Position numbers and translations under genes: made by a program | Shown here: piece after piece, positions 4,635 to 50,015 of the stretch | Layout of the letters: every line of letters starts with the position of its first letter | How positions within the stretch are numbered: position 1 is the first letter of the stretch | Notes under the pieces: model-generated | What the model was told of the DNA's origin: nothing | The model's database searches: none | What the model saw: only the letters and a program-made list of their open reading frames with translations | Source of the DNA: Promicromonospora sukumoe 327MFSha3.1 | Lineage (GTDB): Bacteria; Actinomycetota; Actinomycetes; Actinomycetales; Cellulomonadaceae | NCBI RefSeq assembly: GCF_000385135.1 | Contig: NZ_ARQM01000010.1 | Span: forward strand, 1,798,001-1,862,000 | Direction of reading: 5' to 3' | DNA length: 64,000 bases

Positions 4635-4694
4635 GTTGAGCACAGCAGTTGCTGCCAGGACAGCCGTGCTGCAGCAGCAACTGCTGTGCTCGAC
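4635..4694. repeat. Long hairpin between converging genes, family D copy 1
   Basis: 21-nt arms (4635-4655 and 4674-4694) differ at one base pair and enclose an 18-nt loop, directly after the MerR stop codon and before the end of doxX. Core arm GAGCACAGCAGTTGCTGC. No T-run follows. A second copy with related arms is at 49951-50015. May act as a two-way terminator. Confidence 0.85.
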
Positions 4695-4729
4695 GTCGTG
4701 GTCGGCCGCAGCGGGCGGAACACCAGACC

Positions 4730-5182
4730 TCAGAACGGCAGCCAGACGACGGCGGCCAGCGCGGCCAGATAGAGCGCCTGCTCCGCGAGGCGCCGTCCGA
4801 CCGGCGTGGCGGGCTTGCCGCCGAACAGCACACCGCGGCGAGCCGCGGAGATGTTGGCGGGTGTCATGGCCAGGGTCAAGAGCCCGAGGCAGATCGCGGC
4901 GGCGGGCGCCGTCGCGGGCACCAGCAGGCCGATCGCGCCCGCGAGCTCCAGTACGCCCGTGCCCGCCACGAGCAGGTCCGGGCGCGGCAGGCCCGGCGGC
5001 ACCATGCGGACCAGGTCTCTGCGCACGTGGGGGATGAGCCGTCCGGACGCCGCGATCAGGTAGACGGCCGCGATGCCGATGCGGGTGGCGTCGTGCCAGG
5101 TGTCGAGGGCCGGTACCGCGAGGCCGACCAGGCGCGCGAGCGCGGTGACCCCGACCAGGAGGACGGGAAGGGGGACGGGCAT
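4730..5182 (-). CDS. DoxX family membrane protein
   Basis: Small integral membrane protein of about 150 residues with four hydrophobic segments (PVLLVGVTALARLVGLAVPA; IGIAAVYLIAASG; LVAGTGVLELAGAIGLLVPA and onward; the C-terminal LYLAALAAVVWLPF), the usual DoxX-like layout. I start at ATG 5182, preceded by GGAG; a GTG at 5221 would put a TetR operator inside the coding region. It is divergent from a TetR gene with two matching operators between them, so it is very likely that regulator's target. Relatives are linked to quinone or sulfur redox functions; the role here is unknown. Confidence 0.8.
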   Translation of the reverse strand: MPVPLPVLLVGVTALARLVGLAVPALDTWHDATRIGIAAVYLIAASGRLIPHVRRDLVRMVPPGLPRPDLLVAGTGVLELAGAIGLLVPATAPAAAICLGLLTLAMTPANISAARRGVLFGGKPATPVGRRLAEQALYLAALAAVVWLPF

Positions 5183-5192
5183 GACCGCTCCG

Positions 5193-5211
5193 ATCTTGAC
5201 GGTGACAAGTT
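5193..5211. promoter_or_regulatory. TetR-type operator, copy 1 (doxX side)
   Basis: ATCTTG-N7-CAAGTT, one base off a perfect dyad and the same layout as the site at 5240-5258. It lies in the leader of the doxX-like gene, 11 bp before its ATG. Confidence 0.6.
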
Positions 5212-5239
5212 CGTGCGACACCTCACCACTCGCACTGCT

Positions 5240-5258
5240 ATCTTGTCAATGGCAAGAT
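5240..5258. promoter_or_regulatory. TetR-type operator, copy 2
   Basis: Perfect dyad ATCTTG-N7-CAAGAT in the divergent gap between doxX and tetR, 47 bp from the first site centre to centre. Suggests autoregulation plus control of the doxX-like gene. Confidence 0.7.
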
Positions 5259-5304
5259 CGGTCGAGTTGGCCGCCAGACACGGACGCGAGCGAGACGGAG
5301 CCCC

Positions 5305-5820
5305 ATGAGCTACCACCACGGAGACCTGCGCCGCGCCATGACCGCGGCCGCCGCGACCGCCGTCGCCGAGCGCGGACCCGCCGGCCTCAGCCTGCGCGAG
5401 CTGGCGCGGCTCGCGGGCGTCTCCCACGCGGCGCCCGCCCACCACTTCGGCGACAAGGCGGGCGTGCTCACCGCCGTCGCCACCGAGGGCTTCACGCTGC
5501 TCGCCGAGGCCCTGGGCCAGGCCGGCGACGACCTGCTGGCCGCTGGCGTCGCCTACGTGCGGTTCGCCGTCGGGCACCCCGGGCACTTCGCCGTCATGTT
5601 CGACCGCAGCCTGCTGCACGCCGACGACGCCGACCTGCGTGCCGCCGAGCAGGCGGCCTCCGCGGCGCTCGCGGACCTCGCGCCCGACGCCGACGGCGCC
5701 CGCGCCGCGTGGTCCGTGGCGCACGGCTTCGCGAGCCTGTGGCTCTCGGGTGCCATCGAGGGGCCCGACGTCGTCGCGGCGGCGGAACCCGTACTCCGCC
5801 GGCTGGTCCCGGACGCCTGA
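5305..5820 (+). CDS. TetR/AcrR family transcriptional regulator
   Basis: Starts MSYHHGDLRRAM, a very common opening of one TetR subgroup (TetR with a WHG-like C-terminal domain). Helix-turn-helix at about residues 28-50 (LSLRELARLAGVSHAAPAHH, then FGDKAGVLTAV). The C-terminal part (PGHFAVMFDRSLL and onward) is the ligand and dimer domain. 171 residues, short for the family but complete. Two operators of the same pattern upstream point to control of itself and the divergent DoxX-like gene. Confidence 0.9.
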   Translation: MSYHHGDLRRAMTAAAATAVAERGPAGLSLRELARLAGVSHAAPAHHFGDKAGVLTAVATEGFTLLAEALGQAGDDLLAAGVAYVRFAVGHPGHFAVMFDRSLLHADDADLRAAEQAASAALADLAPDADGARAAWSVAHGFASLWLSGAIEGPDVVAAAEPVLRRLVPDA

Positions 5821-5881
5821 GTCGCGCCGGGCCGGGCGGCGCAAGACGCGTCCAGGGGCCGGGTGCGCGGCCGCCGCAAGC

Positions 5882-5934
5882 GACCATGCACCTGCTGCCG
5901 GTGCAGAAGCCCGTCTGGCAGCAAGTGCATGGTC
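5882..5934. repeat. Long hairpin between converging genes, family B copy 1
   Basis: 18-nt arms GACCATGCACCTGCTGCC (5882-5899) and its near-perfect complement (5917-5934, one mismatch), 17-nt loop. The right arm touches the stop codon of the AraC gene. The second copy is at 33695-33747 with the same arm sequence. Confidence 0.88.
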
Positions 5935-7111
5935 AGCCGACGGCGGGTGTCGCGGGGCGCGGGTCAGCGTCCGCGACCGCCTCGGCGTCCGGCCGGGCCA
6001 CGCCCAGCCCGACCGCCTCGGCGTCCGGCCGGGCCACGCCCGCCCGGCCTGATCGCCCCAGCCCGACCTCCTCGGCACCCGGTTCCCCCGGCGGCCACGG
6101 CGCCTGCTCGATCGGCCGTGCACGGTCACGGCCCGGCGGTGAGCCGAACAGGCGGCGGTACTCGCGGTTGAACTGGGCCGCGCTCTCGTAGCCGACGTCG
6201 AACGCGACCTGCGTGACGCTCGTGTCCCGCGAGGCGAGGATCTGGCGCGCTGTCGCGAGCCGGAGCTGCTTCTGGAACTGGAGCGGGCTCGACCCGGTCA
6301 CCGCGCGGAACGTGCGGTGGAACGCGGATGCGCTCAGGCCCGCGCGCCGGGCGAGGTCCTCGACGCGGACCGGCTCGACCGCGTTGTCCCGGATCCACTG
6401 CACGACGCCGCTCACGCGCGTGAGCTTGCTGTCCGCCAGCCCGAGCTGTCGCACGGTGTCGCCCTGCGGGCCCGTGACCAGCAGCCACAGGATCTCCCGC
6501 TGCACCATCGGCCCGAGGACCGGCAGGTCGCGCGGCCGGTCCAGCAGGCGGACCAGCCGGCCGACGGCGTCCACCAGCTCCGCGGGCGCGCGGCTGGTGA
6601 CCAGCGCCGGGACGACAGCGCCGCGGCCCGACGGGCCGGTTCCCCCCGACGCGGGGGAGTCCGACTGGGCCGAGGTTCGCGTTGCCGGCTGCGTGCGCGC
6701 CCTGGCGCCGCGCCCCGAGGCCGCACCCGCCCGCACCGACCGTCCCGTCGGTGCGGAGGCGCCCGCCCCTGCACCAGCCGCCGCCGACAGGAGCAGCTCC
6801 GCGATCGCCGGTGCGGCAAGCGTCATGCCGAAGCCCAACGCCGGCGCCTCCTCGCTCGCCTCCGTGAACCGGCCGATCACCGGCAGGTCGATCGACGTGA
6901 CCAGGTACTCGCCCGGCCCGTACCCGACCGTCTCGGCGCCCAGCCGGAGCTCCTTGGTGCCCTGGGCGATCAGCGCGAACGTGGTGCCCGTCGTCGACGC
7001 CTCCGGGCTGCCCGGCCGGGTCTCGCGCGAGAGGAACACCCCGGGCAGGGGCTCGCTCGTCCCGGCGGGCGCGCGCTGGTCCAGCAGCTCGCGCAGCTCG
7101 TCGAGATCCAT
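5933..7111 (-). CDS. AraC family transcriptional regulator with cupin-like N-terminal domain
   Basis: About 392 residues. ATG 7111 follows AGGAGGAGG; the open frame continuing to 8206 is only antisense to the SDR gene. Residues 1-130 (GTTFALIAQGTKELRLGAET, then GPGEYLVTSIDLPVIG) match the AraC_N type sugar/aldehyde-sensing domain. The C-terminal AraC DNA-binding part shows both helix-turn-helices (VEDLARRAGLSASAFHRTFR and DTSVTQVAFDVGYESAAQFN). A Gly/Ala/Ser/Thr-rich stretch around residues 140-190 splits the sensor half and is unusual. A long Ala/Asp/Gly tail follows the HTH. Divergent from the SDR gene, its likely target. Confidence 0.88.
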   Translation of the reverse strand: MDLDELRELLDQRAPAGTSEPLPGVFLSRETRPGSPEASTTGTTFALIAQGTKELRLGAETVGYGPGEYLVTSIDLPVIGRFTEASEEAPALGFGMTLAAPAIAELLLSAAAGAGAGASAPTGRSVRAGAASGRGARARTQPATRTSAQSDSPASGGTGPSGRGAVVPALVTSRAPAELVDAVGRLVRLLDRPRDLPVLGPMVQREILWLLVTGPQGDTVRQLGLADSKLTRVSGVVQWIRDNAVEPVRVEDLARRAGLSASAFHRTFRAVTGSSPLQFQKQLRLATARQILASRDTSVTQVAFDVGYESAAQFNREYRRLFGSPPGRDRARPIEQAPWPPGEPGAEEVGLGRSGRAGVARPDAEAVGLGVARPDAEAVADADPRPATPAVG

Positions 7112-7312
7112 GCCGACCACCCTCCTCCTAGGACGCCGCCCGATGCCCGCCTGAGCAGGATCAGGCAAGAACCTGGCAGGAACACCCTCCCTGTCACGCC
7201 CCCGAATCGCCTTGACTGGTCGAGGAGCCAGGGCGCCACGGTCCTGCCTCCCGGCTTCGGTCAGAAGCAGTATCCGGCAACCAATGCACACCAACCAGAA
7301 CACGAGGCAGAC

Positions 7313-8071
7313 ATGTCGATCACCATCGTCGTCGGGGCCAGCTCCGGCATCGGCCAGGCCGCCGCGATCCGCGCTGCGGAGGGCGGGTCCGGCGTCATCG
7401 TCACCTACAACGCCAACCGGGACGGCGCCCTCGAGACCGTCGCGCGCATCCAGGACGCCGGCGGTACCGCCGTCGCCCTGCCGCTCGACGTCGGGGACAG
7501 CGCCACGTTCCCCGCGTTCCGCGCCGCCGTCGAGCGGGCGCTGGCCGAGACCTGGGGCGCGCGCACCGTCACCGGTCTGGTCAACAACGCCGGGTACGGC
7601 GGCGGCACCCTCTTCGCCGACACCACCGAGCAGCAGCTCGACGACTTCTACCGCGTCATCTTCAAGGGCCCCTACCTGGTGACCCAGACCCTGCTCCCGC
7701 TCATCGAGGACGGCGGCTCGATCGTCAACACCGCGAGCAGCTCGGCCGGCACGGCGGGGCTGTCGGAGGGCTACTCCGCCTACGGCTCGATGAAGGGCGC
7801 CGTCATCGTGCTGACCCGCTACCTCGCCAAGGAGCTCGGCGCGCGCGGCATCCGCGTCAACTCGGTCTCCCCGGGCCCCACGAACACCCCGTTCGCCGGC
7901 GGCGCCTTCGAGGCCTACCCCGAGATGACGGCGCAGCTCGTCGAGCGCACCACCCTGGGCCGGCTCGGCCGCCCGGACGACGCCGGATCCGCCATCGCCT
8001 TCCTCCTGTCCGACGGCGGCCGCTGGGTCACCGCGCAGGACATCGAGGTCACGGGCGGCTTCAACCTCTGA
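7313..8071 (+). CDS. SDR family oxidoreductase
   Basis: NAD(P)-dependent dehydrogenase/reductase of 252 residues. The Rossmann motif GASSGIGQ is at about residues 8-15, NNAG after the fourth strand, the catalytic Ser in the TASSSAGTAG region and YxxxK as YGSMK (consensus YSASK altered to YGSMK, Tyr and Lys kept). PGPTNTPF follows the active site. ATG 7313 has GAGG upstream. Divergent from the AraC gene; this AraC/SDR pairing is common and suggests aldehyde or xenobiotic response. Substrate not readable. Confidence 0.9.
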   Translation: MSITIVVGASSGIGQAAAIRAAEGGSGVIVTYNANRDGALETVARIQDAGGTAVALPLDVGDSATFPAFRAAVERALAETWGARTVTGLVNNAGYGGGTLFADTTEQQLDDFYRVIFKGPYLVTQTLLPLIEDGGSIVNTASSSAGTAGLSEGYSAYGSMKGAVIVLTRYLAKELGARGIRVNSVSPGPTNTPFAGGAFEAYPEMTAQLVERTTLGRLGRPDDAGSAIAFLLSDGGRWVTAQDIEVTGGFNL

Positions 8072-8210
8072 CGACGGCGGCCGGCGACCCCGCCGTTTCG
8101 CCGACCGCACCCTCACCGACCACACCGTTCCGGCGACCGGGCGGGACCGGCGGTCGGCCGGACCGACAGCCAGCCAAGCTGAAAGCCAGGCCCGGCGGCC
8201 GGGCACTGGC

Positions 8211-8222
8211 TAGGGTCGGACC
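8211..8222 (+). promoter_or_regulatory. -10 element TAGGGT for a leaderless message
   Basis: TAGGGT (8211-8216) stands 6 nt before GTG 8223 and no ribosome site is present, so transcription should start at the start codon. Confidence 0.5.
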
Positions 8223-8918
8223 GTGCGGCTGGACCCGATGCCTCCGGTGTCGGCCTGGACCCATACCGGGGTCCGGGCCGGCTTCGAGGTCGTGTTCGCG
8301 GAGCAGACTTTCCGGGGCCACGTCTTGCGCGGCCACACCACCGCGGTCGAGGGCGAGGAGGCCTGGTCGGTCGGGTACCGGATCGAGGTCGACAGCCACT
8401 GGCGCACACGTCGCGCCGAGATCGAGGCGGTGACGGCGGCGGGCGCCCTCCGCACCGTCCTCGAACGGGCCGACCTCGCCCCTGACACCAACGCCTCGGC
8501 CGGCACGGACGCTCCAGCTCACGTCCGAGCCGACACCGCTCCGTTCCCTGACCCGGCCCCGAGCCTCGACACGAATCCCGACCCCGCCCCGCCCCGCTGG
8601 CTGGTCGACGGCGTGCCCGACCCCCGGCTGGACGGCTGCCTCGACGTCGACCTGGAGTCCTCCGCGGTGACCAACACGCTGCCGGTCCACCGGCTCGGCC
8701 TCCCGCCGGGCCGGACGCACCAGGCCCCCGCGGCGTTCGTCCGCGCCCAGGACCTCGGCGTCCAGCGGATCGAGCAGGAGTACCGGTTTCGCGAGCGGAC
8801 GCCGGGCTCCCTGCTCCTGGACTACGCGTCCGCGACGTTCGACTTCGCGTGCGTGCTCACCCTCGACGCCGCCGGCCTGGTGCTGGACTACCCCGGGATC
8901 GCCGTCCGCGAGCGCTGA
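8223..8918 (+). CDS. Putative glycolipid-binding domain protein (DUF1089-like)
   Basis: 231 residues. The N-terminal strand pattern (AWTHTGVRAGFEVVF and onward, SVGYRIEVDSHWRTRRAEIE) and C-terminal part (GCLDVDLESSAVTNTLPVHR; QEYRFRE; SATFDFACVLTLDAAGLVLD) match the putative glycolipid-binding family PF06475, including the conserved D-x-x-x-S-x-x-T-N-x-LP segment. About 45 residues around 95-140 are an Asp/Pro/Ala-rich insertion. GTG start preceded by a -10 element at leaderless distance. Biochemical role unknown. Confidence 0.75.
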   Translation: MRLDPMPPVSAWTHTGVRAGFEVVFAEQTFRGHVLRGHTTAVEGEEAWSVGYRIEVDSHWRTRRAEIEAVTAAGALRTVLERADLAPDTNASAGTDAPAHVRADTAPFPDPAPSLDTNPDPAPPRWLVDGVPDPRLDGCLDVDLESSAVTNTLPVHRLGLPPGRTHQAPAAFVRAQDLGVQRIEQEYRFRERTPGSLLLDYASATFDFACVLTLDAAGLVLDYPGIAVRER

Positions 8919-9077
8919 TCCGGACGGGTGCGTCATTCACCCGCCGCGACGTGTATCGTTTCGGCCGCCGCAGGCCTCTGACCTGGGACAAGACCTCTTC
9001 TCGGCCCCGAGATGCGAGTTCCAAAATGTCCTAGTATGGGGGATGATGGCCGCGCCACCTATCACCAGGGGAATACC

Positions 9078-9914
9078 GTGACCGCGACCGCCTCCGGGGC
9101 CACCGCAGCACTGCCCGACGTGCCGACGTCGACACCCGCCCTCGTCGCCTGCGACCTGGGTGGGACCCTCGTGCGTTCCGGACGCCGGGCCACCCCCGCC
9201 GTCGTCGACGCGCTCGCGGCCGTCCGCGCCGCCGGTCACCACCTGGCGATCGCGACGGGCCGGTCGCTGTCGGTCGCGGTGCAGATGGTGCGCCTGCTCG
9301 GTATCCGCGACGGCTGGGTGGTCGCGGCCAACGGCGCCGTGACCGCGCGCCTGGACGGCAACGGCTACTCCGTGGTGCAGGTGACGCCCGTCGAGGCCGA
9401 GCCCGTGGTCCGGCTGGTGTCGAGGATCCGCCCGGACCTGCGGCTCGCGGCCGAGGTGGTCGGCACGGGCTACCGCGTCACCAAGCGGTTCCCCGACGGA
9501 CAGCTTGGCGGGCACCAGGAGGTGCTGCAGCGGGTCGCGGACATCTGGGCGCGCCCGACGCCGCGCCTCGTCGTGCACGGGCAGTGGGCCCAGCGCCTGA
9601 CCCCGGCGCTGCGCGAGTCGGGCGTCACCGCGTTCCCCACCCGGGTCGACTGGGTGGACGTCACCGCGCCCGGCGTCAGCAAGGCGACCGCGCTGGAGAG
9701 CATCCGCGCCGAGCTGGGGGTCGCGCCGTCGCGCACCGTGGCGATCGGGGACGGCGAGAACGACCTCGAGCTGCTCTCCTGGGCGGGCGTGTCGATCGCC
9801 ATGGGCCACGCGCCGGACGCCGTCCGCGCCGTCGCGCACCAGGTCACGAGCAGCGTCGAGCGGGACGGCGCGGCGTCGGCCCTGCACGACGCGCTGCTGC
9901 TGCCGGCGGCCTGA
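9078..9914 (+). CDS. HAD family hydrolase (Cof-type) with altered motif I
   Basis: Start GTG 9078 has AGGGGA upstream; an in-frame ATG at 9012 is less likely. Motif II (AIATGRS), motif III lysine (GVSKATAL) and motif IV (GDGENDLELL) are intact, with a cap domain between residues about 90 and 190 as in Cof phosphatases acting on sugar phosphates or flavins. Motif I reads ACDLGGTLV where the family has DxDGT: the nucleophile Asp is kept but the second Asp, the general acid, is Gly. Either activity is reduced or another residue substitutes. Stands alone upstream of the kinase operon. Confidence 0.82.
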   Translation: MTATASGATAALPDVPTSTPALVACDLGGTLVRSGRRATPAVVDALAAVRAAGHHLAIATGRSLSVAVQMVRLLGIRDGWVVAANGAVTARLDGNGYSVVQVTPVEAEPVVRLVSRIRPDLRLAAEVVGTGYRVTKRFPDGQLGGHQEVLQRVADIWARPTPRLVVHGQWAQRLTPALRESGVTAFPTRVDWVDVTAPGVSKATALESIRAELGVAPSRTVAIGDGENDLELLSWAGVSIAMGHAPDAVRAVAHQVTSSVERDGAASALHDALLLPAA

Positions 9915-9965
9915 CCTGCCCGGACGGCCCCGCTCGGTGCTCTGGGCGACGCATCCGCCCATTGA

Positions 9966-9994
9966 TTGAACCAAAACGTTAGGCCCTCTACCAT
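9966..9994 (+). promoter_or_regulatory. Sigma-70-type promoter of the kinase operon
   Basis: TTGAAC (9966-9971), a 17-bp spacer and TACCAT (9989-9994). Transcription would begin near 10001, some 55 nt before GTG 10056. Confidence 0.55.
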
Positions 9995-10055
9995 CAGGCC
10001 AGCGGTCCGGCGCGGAAGCCGGTTCGGGGTGGTCGGACGAGGAGTCGGGGGCACA

Positions 10056-11834
10056 GTGCCAATCGCAGCGCTCAGCGGGGAGGACCCGCGCGAGGTCGGG
10101 CCGTACGTGATCGAGGGCCGGCTCGGGTCCGGCGGGATGGGCAGCGTCTACCTGGGCCGCCCGCGGACCGGGCGGCCCGTCGCGGTCAAGCTGATCCACC
10201 CGGCGCTGGCGGGCGACGCCGAGTTCCGCACCAGGTTCCGGCGCGAGGTCGCCGCGGCCCGCCGGGTGGGCGGTTTCTGGGCGGCGCAGGTGGTCGACGC
10301 CGACCCCGACGCCGAGCGGCCCTGGATGGCCACCGCCTACGTGGCGGGGCCCTCGCTCGAGGACGCCGTGGGGCAGGAGGGCGCGCTGCCCCTGTCCGTG
10401 GTCCGCACCTTGGGCGCCACCCTCGCCGAGGGGCTGGGCGCGATCCACGACCAGGGCCTGGTGCACCGCGACCTCAAGCCGTCCAACATCCTGCTGGCCG
10501 ACGACGGCCCCCGGGTCGTCGACTTCGGCATCGCCCAGGAGCGCGACGCGACGTCGCTGACGCACCAGGGCTCGATCGGCACGGCGCCCTACATGTCGCC
10601 GGAGCAGGTGCGGGGGCTGGACGTCACGGCGGCGTCCGACGTCTTCTCGCTGGGCTCCGTGCTCGTGTTCGCCTGCACGGGCCGCAGCCCGTTCGGGGGC
10701 GGCGCCGCCGAGGACGTCGCGCGGCGCGTCGTGCGGGACGAGCCCGACCTGGCCGGTGTGCCGTCGGGCCTGCGCGGGCTGGTCGAGGCCTGCCTCGCGA
10801 AGGAGCCGGCCGACCGGCCCGCGCCGTCCGACGTCGTGGACCGGCTCGCGAGCGCCACGGGCGGCGGCTGGGAGCTGCCGGCCGGCGTCGTCGCGATGAT
10901 CGCCGAGCGCGCAGCCGAGGTGGGCGGGGCCGAGGCGGGCGTGGTGTCGGTGTCGTCGCACGACCCCGCGGCGACGGAGCGGATCGAGACGCCGGGCACG
11001 AACCGGGTCCCGGTGGGCACGACACCGGCGGGCACGACTGCGGCCGACGCGGTACGGGTGGGCACGGTCGGGGTGAGCGCCGGCGCGCCCGGCTCCGAGG
11101 ACCGCCCCTGGTGGCGCACCCCGGCGGCACTGTGGACCGGGGTGGGCGTGGCGGCGGTCGTGGTCGGTGTCGCGGGCGCCCTGTCGGTCACCCGAGGGTT
11201 CGGCGGCGGGGCCGGGGGAGGCGCCGACCTGGTCCCGCCGCCGTCTTCGGTGGGCAACATGCAGCTCACCGTGCCGGACGAGACCCACGAGATCACGCTC
11301 GAGGTGACGGCCACCGGCAAGGACGCCGGGCGGATCCCGGTCGGGATGCGGTACGACGGGCGGCTCGGCCCGGCCGGCCTGGCGGACTCGTTCCGCAGTG
11401 CCGAGGACGTCATGGAGATGGACCTGGACAAGATGTACACCGAGATCGAGGTCCCGTGGAGCAAGACGATCACGGCTCAGGGGACCGTCGACGGTGCCAA
11501 CATCACCCTGTCCGCCGAGGCGGGCTGGCAGAACCGGGCGGAGATGACGCTCGGTGACAACGACATCGCCGTCTCCTGTCGGATCCTGATCGATGGCAAG
11601 CCGGTCGTCGAGGAGGCGGGCAAGGTCAACGTGGGCTGCATGCTGCTGCCCGACGAGCTGCAGGCGATGATGGACGAGGCGAAGAAGGACGCTGCCGACC
11701 AGAGCGCGGAGCAGCAGAAGAAGTTCGAGGAGCAGTACCAGGAGCAGCTGGACGAGCTCCCCGAGCCCGGTACGCCCGAGTACGACGAATGGCTGGAGAA
11801 GCTGCTCGGCCAGGCCACGGAAGGCAACGGCTGA
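10056..11834 (+). CDS. Transmembrane Ser/Thr protein kinase with MmpS-like extracellular domain
   Basis: Receptor-type Hanks kinase, 592 residues. Kinase domain about 15-275: Gly loop GRLGSGGMGSVY, VAVK lysine 45, HRDLKPSN, DFG at about 156-158, APE-like SPEQ. A juxtamembrane Thr/Pro/Gly linker and one membrane helix (about 360-380, VAAVVVGVAGALSV) follow. The outside part has PWSKTI, LSAEAG and SCRILIDGKPVVEE with two Cys, the signature of MmpS-like beta-sandwich proteins (my reading). The C-terminus is a Glu/Gln/Lys-rich helix (about 540-592). GTG 10056 is used because the promoter lies within the longer frame. First of three kinase-fold genes. Confidence 0.9.
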   Translation: MPIAALSGEDPREVGPYVIEGRLGSGGMGSVYLGRPRTGRPVAVKLIHPALAGDAEFRTRFRREVAAARRVGGFWAAQVVDADPDAERPWMATAYVAGPSLEDAVGQEGALPLSVVRTLGATLAEGLGAIHDQGLVHRDLKPSNILLADDGPRVVDFGIAQERDATSLTHQGSIGTAPYMSPEQVRGLDVTAASDVFSLGSVLVFACTGRSPFGGGAAEDVARRVVRDEPDLAGVPSGLRGLVEACLAKEPADRPAPSDVVDRLASATGGGWELPAGVVAMIAERAAEVGGAEAGVVSVSSHDPAATERIETPGTNRVPVGTTPAGTTAADAVRVGTVGVSAGAPGSEDRPWWRTPAALWTGVGVAAVVVGVAGALSVTRGFGGGAGGGADLVPPPSSVGNMQLTVPDETHEITLEVTATGKDAGRIPVGMRYDGRLGPAGLADSFRSAEDVMEMDLDKMYTEIEVPWSKTITAQGTVDGANITLSAEAGWQNRAEMTLGDNDIAVSCRILIDGKPVVEEAGKVNVGCMLLPDELQAMMDEAKKDAADQSAEQQKKFEEQYQEQLDELPEPGTPEYDEWLEKLLGQATEGNG

Positions 11835-11868
11835 TGCCCCGGCCCGCTCGACGACCCGGGGCCCGCCC

Positions 11869-13392
<1,524 letters not shown>

Positions 13393-13435
13393 CCGCGGCC
13401 GTCACGAACGGCGCACCACCGAGAGGACACCGAGC

Positions 13436-16536: not shown

Positions 16537-16558
16537 AGGTGAGTCGCTTGACTCACCT
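16537..16558. promoter_or_regulatory. TetR operator, perfect dyad, copy 1
   Basis: AGGTGAGTC-N4-GACTCACCT, a perfect 22-bp dyad in the tetR/SDR divergent gap. Confidence 0.85.
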
Positions 16559-16584
16559 CTCCGGCCGTGCCTACCCTGATCGAG

Positions 16585-16606
16585 AGGTGAGTCGGGCGAC
16601 TCACAA
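16585..16606. promoter_or_regulatory. TetR operator, copy 2
   Basis: AGGTGAGTC-N4-GACTCACAA, same core as copy 1 and 48 bp away centre to centre, next to the SDR gene. Confidence 0.82.
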
Positions 16607-19214: not shown

Positions 19215-19220
19215 GCCCGT

Positions 19221-19260
19221 GTCAGACGTACAGGTCACTCTGGTGACCTGTACGTCTGAC
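19221..19260. repeat. Long hairpin between converging genes, family C copy 1
   Basis: Perfect 18-bp arms GTCAGACGTACAGGTCAC (19221-19238) and complement (19243-19260), loop TCTG. A second copy with changed but mostly compensated inner bases is at 39075-39124. Confidence 0.92.
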
Positions 19261-19274
19261 AGGTGCGGGCTTGC

Positions 19275-25502: not shown

Positions 25503-25566
25503 CGCACCTCCGTAGCGACCCACTCGTAGTGACCCATAGGGTATTTTGGGTCACTACGGAGGTGCG
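25503..25566. promoter_or_regulatory. Nested inverted repeats at the tetR start
   Basis: Outer arms of 20 bp (25503-25522 and 25547-25566, one mismatch) and an inner pair GTAGTGACCCA / TGGGTCACTAC (25526-25536 and 25547-25557) share the same right arm. Three half-sites GTAGYGACCCA result. The right outer arm contains the GGAGG ribosome site of the tetR gene; the left arm contains its complement CCTCC. Confidence 0.8.
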
Positions 25567-27211: not shown

Positions 27212-27290
27212 GAAGGTGCGCTTCTACCCAGCGATTAGGCCCGAAACGAGGGCTGTTTCGGGCGTAATCGCTGGGTAGAAGCGCACTTTC
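27212..27290. repeat. Long hairpin between converging genes, family A copy 1
   Basis: 36-nt arms (27212-27247 and 27255-27290) with two mismatches and a 7-nt loop. The outer core GTGCGCTTCTACCCAG is identical to that of the copy at 38118-38188. It exactly fills the gap between a + strand hydrolase and a - strand tetR. Confidence 0.95.
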
Positions 27291-28288: not shown

Positions 28289-28374
28289 CCCGAGGTTCTG
28301 TTCGGACCACGAGCTCCTGCCCGCAGGACCGAGCTTGAAACGTTGCAACCTCGTGGCTCGAACAGAACCTCGGG
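28289..28374. repeat. Long hairpin, family E (single copy here)
   Basis: 25-nt arms (28289-28313 and 28350-28374) with two mismatches; core CGAGGTTCTGTTCG. The 36-nt loop holds TTGAAACGTTGCAA (28335-28348), an imperfect LacI-type dyad. Unlike most others it lies between divergent genes (tetR and SDR). Confidence 0.85.
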
Positions 28375-33694: not shown

Positions 33695-33747
33695 GACCAT
33701 GCACCTGCTGCCAGAACCGGGTGGGTCCTGGCAGCAGGTGCATGGTC
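33695..33747. repeat. Long hairpin, family B copy 2
   Basis: 19-bp perfect arms beginning GACCATGCACCTGCTGCCA (33695-33713, 33729-33747), 15-nt loop, just after the end of the GH92 gene. Left arm identical to copy 1 at 5882. Confidence 0.92.
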
Positions 33748-37845: not shown

Positions 37846-38049
37846 GTGAGAAGCAACAAGAAGGACCGCGCCCGGCACAAGCACGCGCTCCCGGCCGAGG
37901 CCGTGCGGGAGCGCGCGGAGCACGCCCGGTCGGGCGCGGCCGGGGTGCACACCGACCAGCAGGCCCGGGCCTACCGCACCGGCGCCACCAACCGCGTGGG
38001 CTCGCGCTCGGCCCGGGTCCGCGCCGCGATCCGCGCTGACGAGCGCTGA
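37846..38049 (+). CDS. Small basic hypothetical protein
   Basis: 67 residues, very Arg/Lys/His-rich (RSNKKDRARHKHALPAEAVR; GATNRVGSRSARVRAAIRAD). GTG 37846 has GGAGG 8 nt upstream, which makes it a real gene rather than a shadow. No family recognised; size and charge would suit a nucleic-acid or ribosome-associated protein, but this is a guess. Confidence 0.6.
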   Translation: MRSNKKDRARHKHALPAEAVRERAEHARSGAAGVHTDQQARAYRTGATNRVGSRSARVRAAIRADER

Positions 38050-38090
38050 CCGGCGCTGACCGGCGCTGACCGGCGCTGACCGGCGCCGAG
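38041..38090. repeat. 10-bp tandem repeat across the stop codon
   Basis: CGGCGCTGAC repeated three times between a degenerate first (GAGCGCTGAC) and last unit (CGGCGCCGAG), running through the stop of the small basic gene. Each unit carries TGA, giving extra stops in successive frames. Confidence 0.85.
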
Positions 38091-38117: not shown

Positions 38118-38188
38118 GTGCGCTTCTACCCAGTCATTTGGCCCGAAACACGGCTGATTCCGGGCCTAATGACTGGGTAGAAGCGCAC
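38118..38188. repeat. Long hairpin between converging genes, family A copy 2
   Basis: 28-nt arms (38118-38145 and 38161-38188) with one mismatch, loop 15 nt. Outer core GTGCGCTTCTACCCAG is shared with copy 1; the next bases differ from copy 1 in both arms so that pairing is kept. Confidence 0.93.
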
Positions 38189-39074: not shown

Positions 39075-39124
39075 TCCGTGTCAGACGTACAGATCCCTCT
39101 GGTGATCCGTACGTCTGACACGGA
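39075..39124. repeat. Long hairpin, family C copy 2
   Basis: Arms TCCGTGTCAGACGTAC (39075-39090) and complement (39109-39124), continued by one A-C mismatch and GATC/GATC; central CTCTGG shared with copy 1. Here it is between divergent genes. Confidence 0.9.
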
Positions 39125-42351: not shown

Positions 42352-42360
42352 CACCTGACC

Positions 42361-42390
42361 CGGCCCGGGCGGAGCGTCGCGCCCGGGCCG
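42361..42390 (+). terminator. Terminator stem after the amidase
   Basis: CGGCCCGGGC-N10-GCCCGGGCCG, perfect 10-bp stem, 9 bp after the stop; no T-run. Confidence 0.6.
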
Positions 42391-42419
42391 GTCACGGGCG
42401 CCGCTCGCCTGATCACGGC

Positions 42420-42432
42420 TAGTCTCGCGTCC
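42420..42432 (+). promoter_or_regulatory. -10 element TAGTCT for a leaderless message
   Basis: TAGTCT (42420-42425) and 7 nt to ATG 42433; no ribosome site. Confidence 0.5.
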
Positions 42433-43386: not shown

Positions 43387-43425
43387 CCCGAACCCTCTGA
43401 GTCCGTCGCGCGGCCCAGGCCGGGG

Positions 43426-43437
43426 TAGTTTGGGCGC
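43426..43437 (+). promoter_or_regulatory. -10 element TAGTTT for a leaderless message
   Basis: TAGTTT (43426-43431) and 6 nt to ATG 43438. Confidence 0.5.
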
Positions 43438-44088: not shown

Positions 44089-44113
44089 CTGATCCTGCGC
44101 TGAGAGCGCCGGA

Positions 44114-44147
44114 CCGGCGCCGGGCTCTTCCCCGAGCCCGGCGCCGG
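44114..44147. terminator. Strong bidirectional terminator stem
   Basis: CCGGCGCCGGGCTC-N6-GAGCCCGGCGCCGG, 14-bp perfect stem between tetR and the converging GH3 gene. Confidence 0.75.
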
Positions 44148-44152
44148 AACCG

Positions 44153-46510
44153 TCAGCCGTTCGCCTCGGCCAGCAGCGCCGCCAGGCCGGCGCGGTCGAA
44201 CCCGCCCATGCCGAAGTCGGCGATGACGGTGAGCGGCATGTCGCCGATCATCCCGAGCATGTCGTCGGCCACGCCGCCGCCGTGCACCAGGGCCTCGATC
44301 CGCGGCCCGACGACGGGGTGGCCCATCGCCTCGGCCACGGTGGACAGCGGCTCCAGCGGCAGGCGCACGTCCTCGCCGTCGACCACGACGGTGGCCGAGC
44401 CCCGCAGGTCGCGCGACGACGCGCCCACGGCGACCTCGAACTCGCCGCCCTCGACCACCCAGCGGCGCAGCACGGGGTGCCAGTAGGCCAGGTCGCGGCC
44501 GGTGAGGTCGAACGTGACCTCGCGGGACTCGCCCGGCGCGAGGTCGACCTTGGCGAACGCCTTGAGCTCGCGCTCGGGGCGCTGCACCTGCGCGGCCGGG
44601 TCGGCCACGTACGCCTGCACCACCTCGGCGCCCTGCCGGTCACCGGTGTTGGTCACGGTCACGCGCACGCGCACCGCGGCCTCGTCGTCCGCCACGGCGT
44701 CCGTGCGCAGCACCTCGGCGGCGACGCCGGAGTAGGCGAACGTCGTGTACGACAGGCCGTGCCCGAACGGGTAGGCGACGTCCGCCCGCCGCGCGTCGTA
44801 CCAGCGGTAGCCCACCAGCAGGCCCTCGCCGTACCGCACGTGGCCCAGCTCGCCCGGGAAGTTGCCGTAGGACGGGTTGTCCTCCAGTCGCAGCGGGATC
44901 GTCTCGGCCAGGCGCCCGGCCGGGTTGACCGCGCCGAGCAGCACGTCGACGACGCCGGAGCCGCCGGCCTGGCCGCCGAGCCAGCCCTCGACCACGGCCG
45001 GGGCGAGGTGCTGCCAGCCGGCCACCGAGACGGCCGAGCCGTTCGCCAGCACGACGACGACGCGGGAGCTGACCGCCGCGACCGCCTCCAGCAGCGCGAG
45101 CTGCTCGGCAGGGAGGTCCATGTGCGCGCGGTCGAAGCCCTCGGACTCGTACGAGGCGGGCAGTCCGAGGAAGACCAGCACGGTCCCGGCGGCGCCGGCC
45201 ACCGCGACCGCCTCGTCGCGCAGGGCGGCCTGGTCCGTGCCGGAGCCCGCGTCGGCGCCGTCGACCGTGTAGCCCGCCGCGAACGGCACCTCGGCGCCCG
45301 TCGCGGTGCGCAGCGCGGACAGCGCGTCGTCGAGCCGCGTGGGGTTGACCTGGGAGGATCCCGCGCCCTGGTAGCGCGGCGTCCGGGCCAGCTCGCCGAT
45401 CACGGCGACCCCCTCGCCCGACGCCAGCGGCAGCAGCGGGGCGCCGTCCGCCGGCTCGTTCTTCAGGAGCACCGTGCCCGCGGCCGCGGCCTCGCGGGCC
45501 AGGGTGTGGTGGGCGTCGGCGTCGAAGCCCTCGCCGGAGGCCCTCGCGGCGTCCAGCGCGGGCAGCGAGCGCGCCACCAGGTGGAGCACGCGGCGGGCCG
45601 CGACGTCGACCACGGCCTCGTCGAGCTCACCGGCGCGGACGGCGGCGACCACCTCGGCGTCGGTCCGGCCGCCCGAGGCGGGCATCTCCAGGTCGAGCCC
45701 GGCGGCGACGGCGGCGACGCGGTCGCGCACGGCGCCCCAGTCGGAGACCACGAGGCCCGCGAAGCCCCACTCGTCGCGCAGCACCTCGGTCAGCAGCCAG
45801 TGGTTCTGCGACGCGTAGACGTCGTTGATCTTGTTGTACGAGCACATGACGGTCCACGGCTGCGCCCGCTTGACGACCCGCTCGAACCCGGGCAGGTAGA
45901 TCTCGCGCAGGGTGCGCTCGTCGACGTCGGCCGAGACGCGCATGCGGTCGGCCTCCTGGTTGTTGGCCGCGAAGTGCTTGAGCGACGTGCCGACGCCCTG
46001 GGACTGGATGCCGGCCACGAGGGCCGCGCCGAGCTCGCCCGAGATCACCGGGTCCTCGGAGAGGTACTCGAAGTTGCGCCCGTTCAGGGGCGAGCGCTTG
46101 ATGTTGATGCCGGGGCCGAGCAGCACGGCGACGTCGTTGACGCGCGTCTCGCGGCCCAGGGCCTCGCCCACGCGGCGCAGCAGGGCGGGGTCCCACGTGG
46201 AGCCGAGCGTGGCCGCGGGCGGGAAGCACGTGGCGGGCACCGAGGTGCCGAGCCCGAGGTGGTCGGGGGACTCGGCCTGCTTGCGCAGGCCGTGGGGGCC
46301 GTCGGTGACCATGACGCCGGGGACGGTGACCTCGGGCCGGTCGACGGGCTGGGTGGTCCAGAAGTCCAGGCCCGACAGCAGGGCGGCCTTCTCCTCGAGC
46401 GTGAGGGCGGCCAGCGCGTGCTCGACGTCGAACGCGCGACCCGGCGTCGCGGGCGAGATCTGGCGCGATCCTGCGGCTGCCGGCGTCTCGGTGGTCTCCT
46501 CGATGGTCAT
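44153..46510 (-). CDS. Glycoside hydrolase family 3 beta-glucosidase-like enzyme
   Basis: 785 residues from ATG 46510 (AGGAG upstream); the extra open frame to 46738 runs through the operators. Two-domain GH3 core: LTLEEKAALLSGLDFW, KHFAANNQEADRMRVSADVD and the nucleophile Asp in GFAGLVVSDWGAVRD, then the second domain (GTVLLKNEPADG; ETIPLRLEDNPSY) and a C-terminal fibronectin-III-like domain (ERELKAFAKVDLAPGESREV). No signal peptide, so it acts on imported oligosaccharides. Divergent from the MFS transporter and second GH3, sharing the operator region. Confidence 0.93.
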   Translation of the reverse strand: MTIEETTETPAAAGSRQISPATPGRAFDVEHALAALTLEEKAALLSGLDFWTTQPVDRPEVTVPGVMVTDGPHGLRKQAESPDHLGLGTSVPATCFPPAATLGSTWDPALLRRVGEALGRETRVNDVAVLLGPGINIKRSPLNGRNFEYLSEDPVISGELGAALVAGIQSQGVGTSLKHFAANNQEADRMRVSADVDERTLREIYLPGFERVVKRAQPWTVMCSYNKINDVYASQNHWLLTEVLRDEWGFAGLVVSDWGAVRDRVAAVAAGLDLEMPASGGRTDAEVVAAVRAGELDEAVVDVAARRVLHLVARSLPALDAARASGEGFDADAHHTLAREAAAAGTVLLKNEPADGAPLLPLASGEGVAVIGELARTPRYQGAGSSQVNPTRLDDALSALRTATGAEVPFAAGYTVDGADAGSGTDQAALRDEAVAVAGAAGTVLVFLGLPASYESEGFDRAHMDLPAEQLALLEAVAAVSSRVVVVLANGSAVSVAGWQHLAPAVVEGWLGGQAGGSGVVDVLLGAVNPAGRLAETIPLRLEDNPSYGNFPGELGHVRYGEGLLVGYRWYDARRADVAYPFGHGLSYTTFAYSGVAAEVLRTDAVADDEAAVRVRVTVTNTGDRQGAEVVQAYVADPAAQVQRPERELKAFAKVDLAPGESREVTFDLTGRDLAYWHPVLRRWVVEGGEFEVAVGASSRDLRGSATVVVDGEDVRLPLEPLSTVAEAMGHPVVGPRIEALVHGGGVADDMLGMIGDMPLTVIADFGMGGFDRAGLAALLAEANG

Positions 46511-46547
46511 GGGTGCACTCCTTGGGCTGGACTGTTGCGCTGCAAAC

Positions 46548-46561
46548 CTACCGAGTGGTAG
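46548..46561. promoter_or_regulatory. Operator of the GH3/MFS locus, copy 1
   Basis: CTACCGAGTGGTAG, dyad CTACC-N4-GGTAG, 38 bp before the first GH3 start. Confidence 0.78.
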
Positions 46562-46572
46562 AAATTCAAAAA

Positions 46573-46586
46573 CTACCACCCGGTAG
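46573..46586. promoter_or_regulatory. Operator of the GH3/MFS locus, copy 2
   Basis: CTACCACCCGGTAG. Read on the other strand it is CTACCGGGTGGTAG, one base from copy 1; the sites are 25 bp apart with an A-rich spacer. Placed to control both directions. Confidence 0.78.
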
Positions 46587-46655
46587 CCGTTGGCGACAGC
46601 GGCCCGCCGGGAGCCCGACCAGCCGGGGCAGAGCTGCCCCACCCAGGAGTCCTCC

Positions 46656-47957
46656 ATGGCAACCCTCGATGCGCGTCCCGCGCAGCACGACCCCGCCGTC
46701 GCCGCGCCTCGCCGCGCGGGCGGCACCGGCCTCGTCATCGCCTACGTGGCCGCGTTCTTCGCGCTCTACGTGGCGCTCCTGACGCCGGTGATCAGCACGC
46801 TGGCGCTGCGCGTCAGCGCCCTGTCCACGCCGGAGTCCCGCGCGGCCGACCTGGCGCTGGTGACCGGCGTCGGCGCGTTCTTCGCGTTCGTGGCCAACCC
46901 GCTCGCGGGCGCCCTGTCCGACCGCACCACGTCCCGCCTCGGCATGCGCCGCCCCTGGCTGCTGTGGGGCGTGCTGCTCGGCTCGGCCGGCATCGCGATC
47001 ATCGCGCTCGCGCCCAACATCGCCGTCGTCGCGATCGGCTGGGCCGTCGCGCAGACGGCGTTCAACGGCACCCAGGCGGCGCTGCAGGCTCTGCTGCCCG
47101 ACCAGGTCGAGGAGCGCCTGCGGGCCCGCGTCTCCGGCTGGCTCGGCATCGCGCAGAACCTCGCGCCCCTGGCCGGCATCGGCATCGCGGCCTGGCTGAC
47201 GGCGTCCGGTGCCGGCTCGGCCTGGCTGTTCCTGCTGCCCACCGCGCTGGCCATCGCGGGCGTGCTGGCCCTGGTCGCCGTCCTCAAGGACCGCCGCCTG
47301 GACCCCGCCGACGTCGAGCCGTTCCACCTGGGCCGCTTCCTCGGCGGGTTCTGGGTCTCGCCGCGCAAGCACCCCGACTTCGGCTGGGCCTTCGCCGGCC
47401 GCTTCCTGCTGCTGTTCGGCTTCGCGCTCTACAACAGCTACCAGGTCTACTTCCTGCAGGACCGCTTCGGCATGGACGAGCCGACGGCGCTCGGCTGGCA
47501 GCTGCGCCTGATGGTGCTCCAGGCCGCCGTGCTGCTCCTGGCGGGCTCGGTCGGCGGCTCGCTGTCGGACCGCACCGGCCGCCGCAAGGTGTTCGTGATC
47601 ATCTCCACCGTGCTGGCGGGCGCCGGCCTGCTCGTCTTCGCCTTCGCGGGCGCGCCGGAGCACCTGTACCTGGGTGCCGGCCTGTTCGGCGCGGGCCTGG
47701 GGGCGTACTTCGCCGTCGACCTGGCGCTCGTGACCGACGTGCTGCCCAACAAGGACACCGAGGCCGCCAAGAACATGGGCGTCTTCAACATCGCCAACGC
47801 ACTGCCGCAGTCGCTCGCCCCGGCCATGGCCCCGGCGCTGCTCGCGATCGGCCCGGCCTCCGGGGCGGGCGGCAACTACACCGCGCTGTTCCTGGTGGGT
47901 GCGCTGGTGGCCGTCGTCGGCGCCGTGAGCACCATGTTCATCCGGGGTGCGCGGTGA
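46656..47957 (+). CDS. MFS transporter (sugar/oligosaccharide-type)
   Basis: 433 residues with 12 expected helices. GALSDRTTSRLGMRRPWLLW between helices 2 and 3 and GGSLSDRTGRRKVFVIIST in the second half are the paired MFS loop motifs. The RLGMRRPW type resembles GPH-like or plant-type sugar symporters. ATG 46656 follows AGGAG. Its stop overlaps the GTG of the second GH3, so import and cleavage are coupled. Probably brings in glucosides; exact sugar unknown. Confidence 0.88.
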   Translation: MATLDARPAQHDPAVAAPRRAGGTGLVIAYVAAFFALYVALLTPVISTLALRVSALSTPESRAADLALVTGVGAFFAFVANPLAGALSDRTTSRLGMRRPWLLWGVLLGSAGIAIIALAPNIAVVAIGWAVAQTAFNGTQAALQALLPDQVEERLRARVSGWLGIAQNLAPLAGIGIAAWLTASGAGSAWLFLLPTALAIAGVLALVAVLKDRRLDPADVEPFHLGRFLGGFWVSPRKHPDFGWAFAGRFLLLFGFALYNSYQVYFLQDRFGMDEPTALGWQLRLMVLQAAVLLLAGSVGGSLSDRTGRRKVFVIISTVLAGAGLLVFAFAGAPEHLYLGAGLFGAGLGAYFAVDLALVTDVLPNKDTEAAKNMGVFNIANALPQSLAPAMAPALLAIGPASGAGGNYTALFLVGALVAVVGAVSTMFIRGAR

Positions 47958-49858
47958 CGGCGACCGAGGCGGGCCGCGAGGTAGGGCCGGAGCCGGTGCC
48001 CGAGGCGGAGCCGTACCGCGACCCCGCGCTGCCCGTCGCCGAGCGGGTCGCCGACCTGCTGGGGCGCATGACCCTGGCCGAGAAGGCCGGGCAGATGTTC
48101 CAGACCATGGTCGAGGTCGGCCCGGGCGGCAGCCTCGCCGACGCGCCGTCCGACCACGGCATGCCGGGCACGTCCGACCTGGTCGTGGAGCGGCACATGA
48201 CGCACCTCAACGTGCTCGCCGCGCCGCCGACCGCCCGCGAGTTCGCCGTCTGGCACAACCGCCTGCAGCGGCTCGCCGCGGACACCCGGCTGGGCATCCC
48301 CGTGACCGTGGCCTCCGACCCGAGGCACTCGTTCACCGACAACCCGGGCGCCGCCCTGCTGTCGGGGCCGTTCTCGCAGTGGCCCGAGACCCTGGGCCTG
48401 GCCGCGACCCGCGACGAGCTGCTGGTCGAGGAGCACGGCGACGCCGCCCGCCAGGAGTACCTCGCCGTCGGCATACGGACGGCGCTGCACCCGCAGGTCG
48501 ACCTCGTCACCGAGCCCCGCTGGGCCCGCGGCGGGGGCACCTTCGGTGAGGACGCCGACCTCACCGGGCGCCTCGGCGCCGCCTACGTGCGCGGCCTGCA
48601 GGCGGGCGGCGACGTCGCGCGTGCGGCCGGGCTGGACGGCGCGTTCGGGCCGGCGAGCGTCTCCACGATGACGAAGCACTTCCCGGGCGGCGGCCCGCAG
48701 CTCGACGGCGAGGACCCGCACTTCGCCTACGGTCGCGAGCAGGTCTACCCGGGCGACCGGTTCGACCTGCACCTGGAGCCGTTCAAGGCGCTGCTCGCCG
48801 CCGGGACGCGGCAAATGATGCCGTACTACGGCATGCCGGTGGGGCTCCGCGCGGACCTCGGCTCCGGGCCCGAGGACGTCGAGCAGGTCGGCTTCGGCTT
48901 CAACCGCGGCGTGCTGACCCGGCTGCTGCGCGAGCACCTCGGCTTCGACGGCATCATCTGCACCGACTGGGGCCTGGTGACCGACGTCGAGATGTTCGGC
49001 CTCCCGTTCCCGGCCCGCGCCTGGGGCGTGGAGCACCTCAGCCCCCTGGAGCGGGTCGCGAAGATCCTGGACGCCGGCGCCGACCAGCTCGGCGGGGAAG
49101 CCTGCCCCGAGCACGTCGTCGAGCTCGTCGCGTCCGGCCGGGTGCCCGAGGAGCGGATCGACGCCTCCGTGCGGCGCCTGCTGACCGAGAAGTTCGAGCT
49201 CGGGCTGTTCGACGAGCACCGGTACGTGGACGAGGACGCCGCCGCCGTCGTCGTCGGGCGGGCCGACCTGGTCGCCGCCGGGCGGCGGGCGCAGTCCCGG
49301 TCGGTGACGGTGCTGCGCAACGCAGGCAGGGGAGCGGCGGGTCTGCCGCTCGCGCCGGGCCTGCGCCTGTACGCGGAGGGTGTGCCCGACGGCGAGGTGG
49401 CCGGGTTCCGGCGCGTCGCCACCCCGGCGGAGGCCGACGTCGCGCTGCTGCGCCTCGAGGCGCCGTACGAGGAGCGCGGCCCGGGCTTCGAGAGCTTCTT
49501 CCACGCGGGGTCGCTCGAGTTCGCCGACGACGTCGTGGCCCACGTCGCCGAGGTGGCCGCCGCGGTGCCCACCGTGGTGGACGTGCACCTGGACCGGCCT
49601 GCGGTCCTGACGCCGCTGCTGCCGCACGCGGACACCCTGGTCGTCACGTTCGGCGTGGGCACGCCCGCGCTGCTCGACGCGCTGACCGGGACGGTGCCGC
49701 CCGAGGGCCGGCTGCCGTTCGACCTGCCGCGGTCCGCCGCCGCGGTCGAGGCGTCCCGCAGCGACGTCCCGTTCGACACGGCCGACCCGCTGTTCCGCTT
49801 CGGCGCCGGCGAGGGGCTGGACACGGAGGGCGACACGGAGGGCGACACTGCGGCGTGA
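47954..49858 (+). CDS. Second GH3 family glycoside hydrolase
   Basis: 634 residues from GTG 47954, overlapping the MFS stop (GTGA); the frame running up to 46964 is antisense-free shadow of the MFS gene and rejected. LLGRMTLAEKAGQMFQTMVE, HPQVDLVTEPRWARGGGTFG, the KHFPGGGPQLDGEDPH signature and nucleophile Asp in FDGIICTDWGLVTDVEM. Second domain is shorter, ending at FRFGAGEGL, without the fibronectin-like domain of its partner. Cytoplasmic. Complements the first GH3, perhaps with a different linkage preference. Confidence 0.92.
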   Translation: MTATEAGREVGPEPVPEAEPYRDPALPVAERVADLLGRMTLAEKAGQMFQTMVEVGPGGSLADAPSDHGMPGTSDLVVERHMTHLNVLAAPPTAREFAVWHNRLQRLAADTRLGIPVTVASDPRHSFTDNPGAALLSGPFSQWPETLGLAATRDELLVEEHGDAARQEYLAVGIRTALHPQVDLVTEPRWARGGGTFGEDADLTGRLGAAYVRGLQAGGDVARAAGLDGAFGPASVSTMTKHFPGGGPQLDGEDPHFAYGREQVYPGDRFDLHLEPFKALLAAGTRQMMPYYGMPVGLRADLGSGPEDVEQVGFGFNRGVLTRLLREHLGFDGIICTDWGLVTDVEMFGLPFPARAWGVEHLSPLERVAKILDAGADQLGGEACPEHVVELVASGRVPEERIDASVRRLLTEKFELGLFDEHRYVDEDAAAVVVGRADLVAAGRRAQSRSVTVLRNAGRGAAGLPLAPGLRLYAEGVPDGEVAGFRRVATPAEADVALLRLEAPYEERGPGFESFFHAGSLEFADDVVAHVAEVAAAVPTVVDVHLDRPAVLTPLLPHADTLVVTFGVGTPALLDALTGTVPPEGRLPFDLPRSAAAVEASRSDVPFDTADPLFRFGAGEGLDTEGDTEGDTAA

Positions 49859-49950
49859 CGGGCCGGAGACCCTCAACCTCGGCCTGAGGCTGAGCCACGG
49901 GCAACCCTCAACATCAGGTTGAACCTGAGGCCCGCGGTGTCCGGCTCCCG

Positions 49951-50015
49951 GTGTTGACCACAGCAGTTCCTGCCACGAGAGCCCCTCTGCCGGCAGGAAC
50001 CGCTGTGCTCAACAC
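49951..50015. repeat. Long hairpin between converging genes, family D copy 2
   Basis: 24-nt arms (49951-49974 and 49992-50015), two mismatches, 17-nt loop. Core CACAGCAGTTCCTGCC relates it to the copy at 4635-4694; the one changed base inside the arm is matched by a change in the other arm. Confidence 0.88.

What the first reader, a model, noticed from the sequence alone, without database searches (positions are those of the whole stretch)
4635..50015. Families of long intergenic palindromes, each present twice in the window, with compensated arm changes
Eight hairpins fall into four families (A at 27212 and 38118, B at 5882 and 33695, C at 19221 and 39075, D at 4635 and 49951), plus a single E at 28289. 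Within a family the outer arm is the same at both sites; many changed bases are matched by a change in the opposite arm (A: CAGCGATTA/TAATCGCTG versus CAGTCATT/AATGACTG; D: GTTGCTGC versus GTTCCTGC; C: GGTC/GACC versus GATC/GATC). Six of the nine lie between converging genes. They are too long and too alike to be ordinary terminators and lack T-runs. They look like REP-type or mobile palindromic elements, or a coordinated terminator/RNA-processing class; no transposase is near.
Basis: partly seen in the sequence, partly recalled or inferred. Interest (0 to 1): 0.8.

Follow-up and report, generated by a model that had tools for sequence, protein, structure and literature searches.

The report
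Dispersed palindromes at gene 3' ends
The nine hairpins belong to at least nine families of fixed-length, near-perfect DNA palindromes that have spread through Promicromonospora genomes, sitting just after stop codons and mostly between converging genes, although none of 13 Promicromonospora genomes searched encodes the tyrosine transposase that spreads similar repeats (REPs) in other bacteria.

Summary
Confirmed and much larger than reported. All nine hairpins exist where stated, and "present twice" is an accident of the window: in this 6.25 Mb genome (genus Promicromonospora) family C has ~120 copies, A 27, B and D ~15 each, E at least 6. A 1.26 Mb sample adds F, G, H, I and others. Families A-I have fixed lengths (44-84 bp) and almost never occur as half-elements. 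They behave as insertions: intergenic regions with an element are as long as those without, once the element is subtracted, and orthologous sites are filled, empty or hold another family. They lie a median 22 nt after the upstream stop in tandem pairs and are strongly enriched between converging genes. Arms covary, including compensated changes at orthologous loci, but wobble mismatches show no transcript-strand bias, so DNA-level arm-to-arm copying (template switching) explains the compensation better than RNA selection. No Y1/RAYT transposase family (PF01797) was found in 13/13 genus genomes, no GTAG/CGTC tag, no target duplication, no resident IS with these ends. They work like REPs but fail the tested RAYT and tag criteria. 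Best reading: RAYT-independent REP-like elements acting as portable 3'-end hairpins. Function and mobilising factor remain inferred.

The parts
4635..4694 (.). D1, family D palindrome (60 bp variant of the 61-bp element), converging genes
5882..5934 (.). B1, family B palindrome (53 bp), converging genes
19219..19262 (.). C1, family C palindrome (44 bp), converging genes, starts 4 nt after a stop codon
27216..27286 (.). A1, family A palindrome (71 bp), converging genes; a degenerate copy sits at the same place in relative G006
28290..28373 (.). E, family E palindrome (84 bp), diverging genes; absent at the orthologous site of G006
33695..33747 (.). B2, family B palindrome (53 bp), tandem genes; retained in Promicromonospora sp. 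MEB111 (G007) next to an extra gene
38118..38188 (.). A2, family A palindrome (71 bp), converging genes; same site filled in G007 and G006, empty in G003 and G004
39078..39121 (.). C2, family C palindrome (44 bp), diverging genes; flanks extend the palindrome; empty in G003, G005, G001
49953..50013 (.). D2, family D palindrome (61 bp), converging genes; conserved in G007; in G006 the same interval is an array of D and G palindromes; no element in G009

Best explanation
These are REP-like, non-coding dispersed repeats: many co-resident families of fixed-length palindromes (44-84 bp in families A-I) that inserted as whole units into already compact intergenic regions of Promicromonospora, by a RAYT-independent route not identified here. 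They settle, or are kept, immediately downstream of stop codons, above all between converging genes, where each can form a strong hairpin in the transcript from either side and so act as a portable bidirectional 3'-end element (terminator or RNA-end protector). Their arms are kept matched mainly at the DNA level: one arm is rewritten from the other by replication template switching (quasipalindrome correction), which yields compensated changes and symmetric outward extensions without selection on RNA pairing. Shown: dispersal, fixed length, insertion-like gain and loss between species, 3'-end position, arm covariation, no RAYT family detected, no tag, no target duplication. Inferred: the 3'-end function, the template-switch mechanism, and the existence of an unknown mobilising factor.
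For: Copy number and fixed spacing genome-wide (reversed-pattern control 0 in 51 and 52). Fixed lengths and almost no unpaired arms. Elements add to intergenic length: converging regions have a median of 59 bp outside the element, equal to 59 bp in those without one. Orthologous sites with and without elements, and family replacement at two sites, G to C and an unrelated palindrome to C. Position: of 104 intergenic A-I elements 52 converging, 45 tandem, 7 diverging, against 125/382/214 intergenic regions; 40 of 49 tandem elements are nearer the upstream stop, median 22 nt. Arm matching exceeds all 200 shuffles in families A-D and F-I. Twelve G000/MEB111 orthologous pairs: arms 7.0% diverged, loops 19.6%, fourfold sites 24.7%; five pairs changed on both sides while staying paired. 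GU:AC 87:76 at tandem sites. Perfect flank extensions of 18, 17, 10, 7 and 7 bp starting at the element edge; >=6 bp seen 5 times, 0.35 expected; at C10:192935 the right flank is shared with MEB111 while its inverted copy on the left is found only here. PF01797 absent in 13/13 genomes. Template switching is published as able to produce such compensations (PMC8794818).
Against: No mobilising enzyme was found and few recent identical copies exist (median nearest-paralog differences 2-10), so transposition is inferred from gain/loss and copy number. No transcript data, and T-runs are lacking, so termination is untested. Loss at many orthologous sites shows that no single element is essential. The one-element-per-converging-region pattern is only marginal for strictly defined families (P about 0.06). 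The orthologous comparison is partly biased, because several MEB111 loci were fetched for carrying family C.
Confidence: 0.6

Rival explanations
1. Classical REP/REPIN elements moved by a RAYT (IS200/IS605-like Y1) transposase.
For: Copy number, extragenic 3'-end position and BIME-like alternating D/G array in G006 match REPs as described in PMC3733652.
Against: No PF01797 match in 13/13 genus genomes, while the control rings in 5 known genomes. No GTAG or CGTC tag. Arms are long near-perfect palindromes, not 6-13 bp stems. PMC6006769 reports that Actinobacteridae carry only subclass 1.1 of the Y1 family.
Confidence: 0.05
2. MITEs: relics of ordinary insertion sequences, moved in trans by an IS transposase that recognises the arms as terminal inverted repeats.
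For: Fixed-length units with inverted ends, gain and loss at orthologous sites, lineage-specific amplification.
Against: In whole-genome arm searches, nearly all close arm matches belong to complete palindromes, and the unpaired ones in the 1.26 Mb sample are degenerate or chance matches, so no IS with these ends was seen. No target-site duplication. Ten or so unrelated families would need as many transposases.
Confidence: 0.2
3. Compensated changes are due to selection on RNA base-pairing (a coordinated class of terminator or RNA-processing hairpins), with conserved sequence from recent common origin.
For: Strong hairpins, anchored just after stop codons, retained with conserved arms between species.
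Against: GU and AC mismatches are equally common in transcript orientation at tandem sites (87:76). The outer arm sequence itself hardly changes (family C GTGTCAGAC, 93-100% per position), which pairing alone does not require.
Confidence: 0.25
4. Ordinary intrinsic terminators that became alike by chance or local evolution.
For: Position between converging genes.
Against: Family-wide identity over 44-84 bp at unlinked loci, no T-run, element length added to, not taken from, the intergenic region.
Confidence: 0.03
5. Binding sites of DNA-binding proteins (regulators or nucleoid proteins), one per family.
For: Sequence-specific conservation of symmetric arms; motif repeats about 19 bp apart in the arms of G and of one extended C copy.
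Against: Depleted in front of genes (7 of 104 between diverging genes). Stems are far longer than usual operators.
Confidence: 0.1

Closest known systems
REP elements, BIMEs and REPINs (GTAG and CGTC superfamilies)
   Same: High-copy extragenic palindromes, lineage-specific, several families per genome, mostly between converging or tandem genes, sometimes in alternating arrays
   Different: Longer near-perfect palindromes of fixed 44-84 bp, no unpaired GTAG/CGTC tag, no Y1/RAYT family detected in the genus; the 2013 survey lists no Actinobacteria (PMC3733652)
CGTC-tagged REPs (alpha-proteobacteria, Rickettsia RPE)
   Same: Abundant palindromes without a dedicated transposase (PMC3733652)
   Different: No CGTC tag here; longer stems
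MITEs (RUP, NEMIS, ERIC, Nezha and others)
   Same: Short non-coding dispersed units with inverted ends, often next to coding sequences
   Different: Whole element is one palindrome; no target duplication; no parent IS with these ends found
Quasipalindrome template-switch products
   Same: Arm homogenisation, multi-base compensated changes and inverted-repeat extension (PMC8794818, PMC7202029)
   Different: Those describe a mutation process, not a dispersed repeat family
Intrinsic (Rho-independent) terminators
   Same: Hairpin just after stop codons, symmetric between converging genes
   Different: No T-run, dispersed sequence families, very long stems

Membership tests
REP (GTAG/CGTC superfamilies) | High-copy extragenic palindrome | tested here: met
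REP (GTAG/CGTC superfamilies) | Unpaired GTAG or CGTC tetranucleotide at one end | tested here: not met
   GTAG in 0-1 copies per family; CGTC near family C is part of symmetric GACG...CGTC flanks in 9 of 39
REP (GTAG/CGTC superfamilies) | 20-40 bp unit with short stem | tested here: not met
   44-84 bp, arms nearly full length
REP (GTAG/CGTC superfamilies) | Associated RAYT (Y1) transposase in the genome (GTAG class) | tested here: not met
   0 of 13 genomes
REP (GTAG/CGTC superfamilies) | Preference for converging and tandem intergenic regions | tested here: met
MITE | Terminal inverted repeats and small fixed size without coding capacity | tested here: met
MITE | Target-site duplication | tested here: not met
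   k = 2-10 at offsets 0-4, no consistent excess in 159 copies
MITE | Parent IS with the same ends | tested here: inconclusive
   No solo arms flanking genes, but only about 20% of the genome was read in full
MITE | Gain/loss at orthologous sites | tested here: met
Intrinsic terminator | Hairpin followed by a T-run | tested here: not met
Intrinsic terminator | Transcript 3' end at the hairpin | not testable with these tools
   needs Term-seq
Known structured RNA (Rfam 15) | Match above gathering score | tested here: not met
   no match in the window

The most novel reading that the evidence does not exclude
A class of mobile palindromes outside both the RAYT/REP and the IS/MITE worlds: near-perfect hairpins propagated by an unknown factor and re-perfected by arm-to-arm DNA copying, recruited across a genus as interchangeable bidirectional 3'-end modules, with one family replacing another at the same gene pair.
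Probability: 0.25. Interest if true: 0.8.

Novelty: new variant of a known kind. Interest (0 to 1): 0.6.

Why it matters
REPs are usually explained by RAYT transposases, and CGTC REPs without one are an open problem. Here is a genus with at least nine palindrome families, up to about 200 copies of one family per genome, and no RAYT detected, so it is a clean system for asking how palindromes spread without it. It also lets one separate DNA-level arm homogenisation from RNA selection, which matters because compensated changes are routinely read as proof of RNA structure. If the elements terminate transcripts, they are portable bidirectional terminators for high-GC actinomycetes.

Tried and rejected
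RAYT search by PF01797 in the genome and genus: nothing. Rfam on the window: nothing. Target-site duplications: none. T-run tails: none. RNA-strand wobble asymmetry: none. IS with matching ends: none. Families A and C in viral contigs: none. Strong one-per-region under-dispersion: suggestive with all palindromes >=16, only marginal with strict families, so not relied on. A first family definition by shared 11-mers was too lax at this GC content and was replaced by 15-mers. Literature searches gave no report of these repeats in Promicromonospora or relatives; the library is incomplete, so this does not show they are undescribed.

Full report
Observation. The nine hairpins are real, very stable and in the contexts described. 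The window is G000:C10:1798001-1862000 of a 6.25 Mb genome. The genus is Promicromonospora: exact family C palindromes occur in named contigs of Promicromonospora sp. MEB111, P. kroppenstedtii, P. panici and sp. AC04 only, and relative G007 is MEB111 by matching contig lengths.

Scale. Arm searches of the whole genome return many copies at fixed arm-to-arm spacing. Counting whole elements, there are 27 A and 120 C elements, with zero hits for the reversed pattern. A blind palindrome scan of 1.264 Mb found 125 palindromes of score >=18 against 0 in a Markov control and revealed further families: F (GTCGAACGTAGGG), G (GGTCGGCAGAATGTCAGGTGGTCGGCA), H (TTTGAGGCCTAAGTTTCTTCGCTTTG), I (TCGGCAGTTGGCATCGAGATCGG), plus J, K, L, M and an unnamed one. 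Families A-I have fixed lengths: A 71, B 53, C 44, D 61, E 84, F 60, G 62, H 70, I 58. They almost never occur as half-elements.

Distribution. Counts vary strongly by species: family C has 201 copies in G006, 120 in G000, 102 in MEB111, 55 in G010, and fewer or none in the rest of the genus. Outside the genus, only isolated divergent matches appear in 137 genomes of the same family for C, and none for A. At one mismatch, C is absent from 296 other genomes of the order.

They are insertions. At orthologous gene pairs the element can be present (A2 in G007 and G006, D2 in G007), absent (A2 in G003 and G004; C2 in G003, G005 and G001; D2 in G009), multiplied into an array of D and G palindromes (D2 in G006), or of another family (G in G000 versus C in MEB111; an unrelated palindrome in G000 versus C in MEB111). 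One lost A element in MEB111 leaves what looks like the end of one arm. Subtracting elements, converging intergenic regions with and without them have the same median length, 59 bp. No target duplication was found in 159 copies.

Position. Of 104 intergenic A-I elements in the sample, 52 lie between converging genes, 45 between tandem and 7 between diverging genes, against 125, 382 and 214 such regions. In tandem pairs 40 of 49 are nearer the upstream stop, at a median of 22 nt. With all palindromes of score >=16, 64 of 125 converging regions are occupied. This is REP-like, and it is also where transcripts end.

Compensation. Arms match within an element more than across elements in all tested families except E, where inner sequence dominates. 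In 12 orthologous pairs the arms diverged 7.0%, the loops 19.6% and neighbouring fourfold sites 24.7%, with five pairs changed on both sides; this set is partly biased, because several MEB111 loci were fetched for carrying C. If RNA pairing were selected, GU mismatches should exceed AC in transcript orientation; they do not (87:76 at tandem sites). Elements show perfect palindromic extensions into unique flanks, up to 18 bp and starting exactly at the element edge, more often than chance. At C10:192935 the right flank is shared with MEB111 while its inverted copy on the left is found only in G000. These are expected footprints of template switching between arms, a process proposed to create and maintain hairpins (PMC8794818). 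I therefore favour DNA-level copying for the compensation. This is inference, not proof.

What moves them. The Y1 transposase family PF01797 was not found in 13 of 13 genomes of the genus. Arms do not flank any gene-carrying element in the sequence read. Flanks lack the GTAG/CGTC tag. Published surveys place tagged REPs in other phyla (PMC3733652) and report that Actinobacteridae carry only subclass 1.1 of the Y1 family (PMC6006769). So these elements work like REPs but fail several features tested for that class (tag, unit size, RAYT). The mobilising route is unknown. Few copies are identical, so spread in this strain is not very recent.

Verdict. A real, large and interesting repeat system: RAYT-independent REP-like palindromes kept at gene 3' ends. 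The 3'-end function is the most likely role but rests on position and hairpin stability only.

Noticed in passing
G000:C10:245249-245330, 281347, 392374-392450, 1998312, 2004226: Family J (CGCTGGTCGAGCCTGTCGAGACC) differs from A-I: it often occurs as single half-palindromes, some apparently inside coding sequence, besides forming palindromes.
   Followed up: partly
G006:C1:2345001-2347000 (site of A2): A tandem array of a different palindrome family (GATCGGTCGGCTGC...GACCGGTCC...) sits beside the A element at this converging gene pair.
   Followed up: no
G000:C10:535130-535207: A chimeric palindrome with the inner half of family A but a different outer half on both arms (GAAGTCACGGTCTACCCAG...), a symmetric arm replacement.
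   Followed up: no
G000:C2:55773 (locus L061): A family C element whose two arms are both extended by 18 bp that repeat the outer motif TGTCAGAC; similar motif repeats occur in the long copies of family G.
   Followed up: partly
16539-16604: Inverted repeat GTGAGTCGCTTGACTCACCTCTC between diverging genes, likely an operator rather than one of these families.
   Followed up: no
25503-25566: Inverted repeat CGCACCTCCGTAGCGACCCA just upstream of a gene; the same palindrome is conserved at the orthologous site in G006, probably regulatory.
   Followed up: no
38040-38090: Short tandem repeat of CGGCGCTGAC next to the stop codon before A2, not seen at the orthologous site in MEB111.
   Followed up: no
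G014:C45:60172 and 62023 (loci L289-L293): A different long palindrome family (GCGCACATNACNTCGGCA...) in another genus of the same family, suggesting the phenomenon is wider than Promicromonospora.
   Followed up: no
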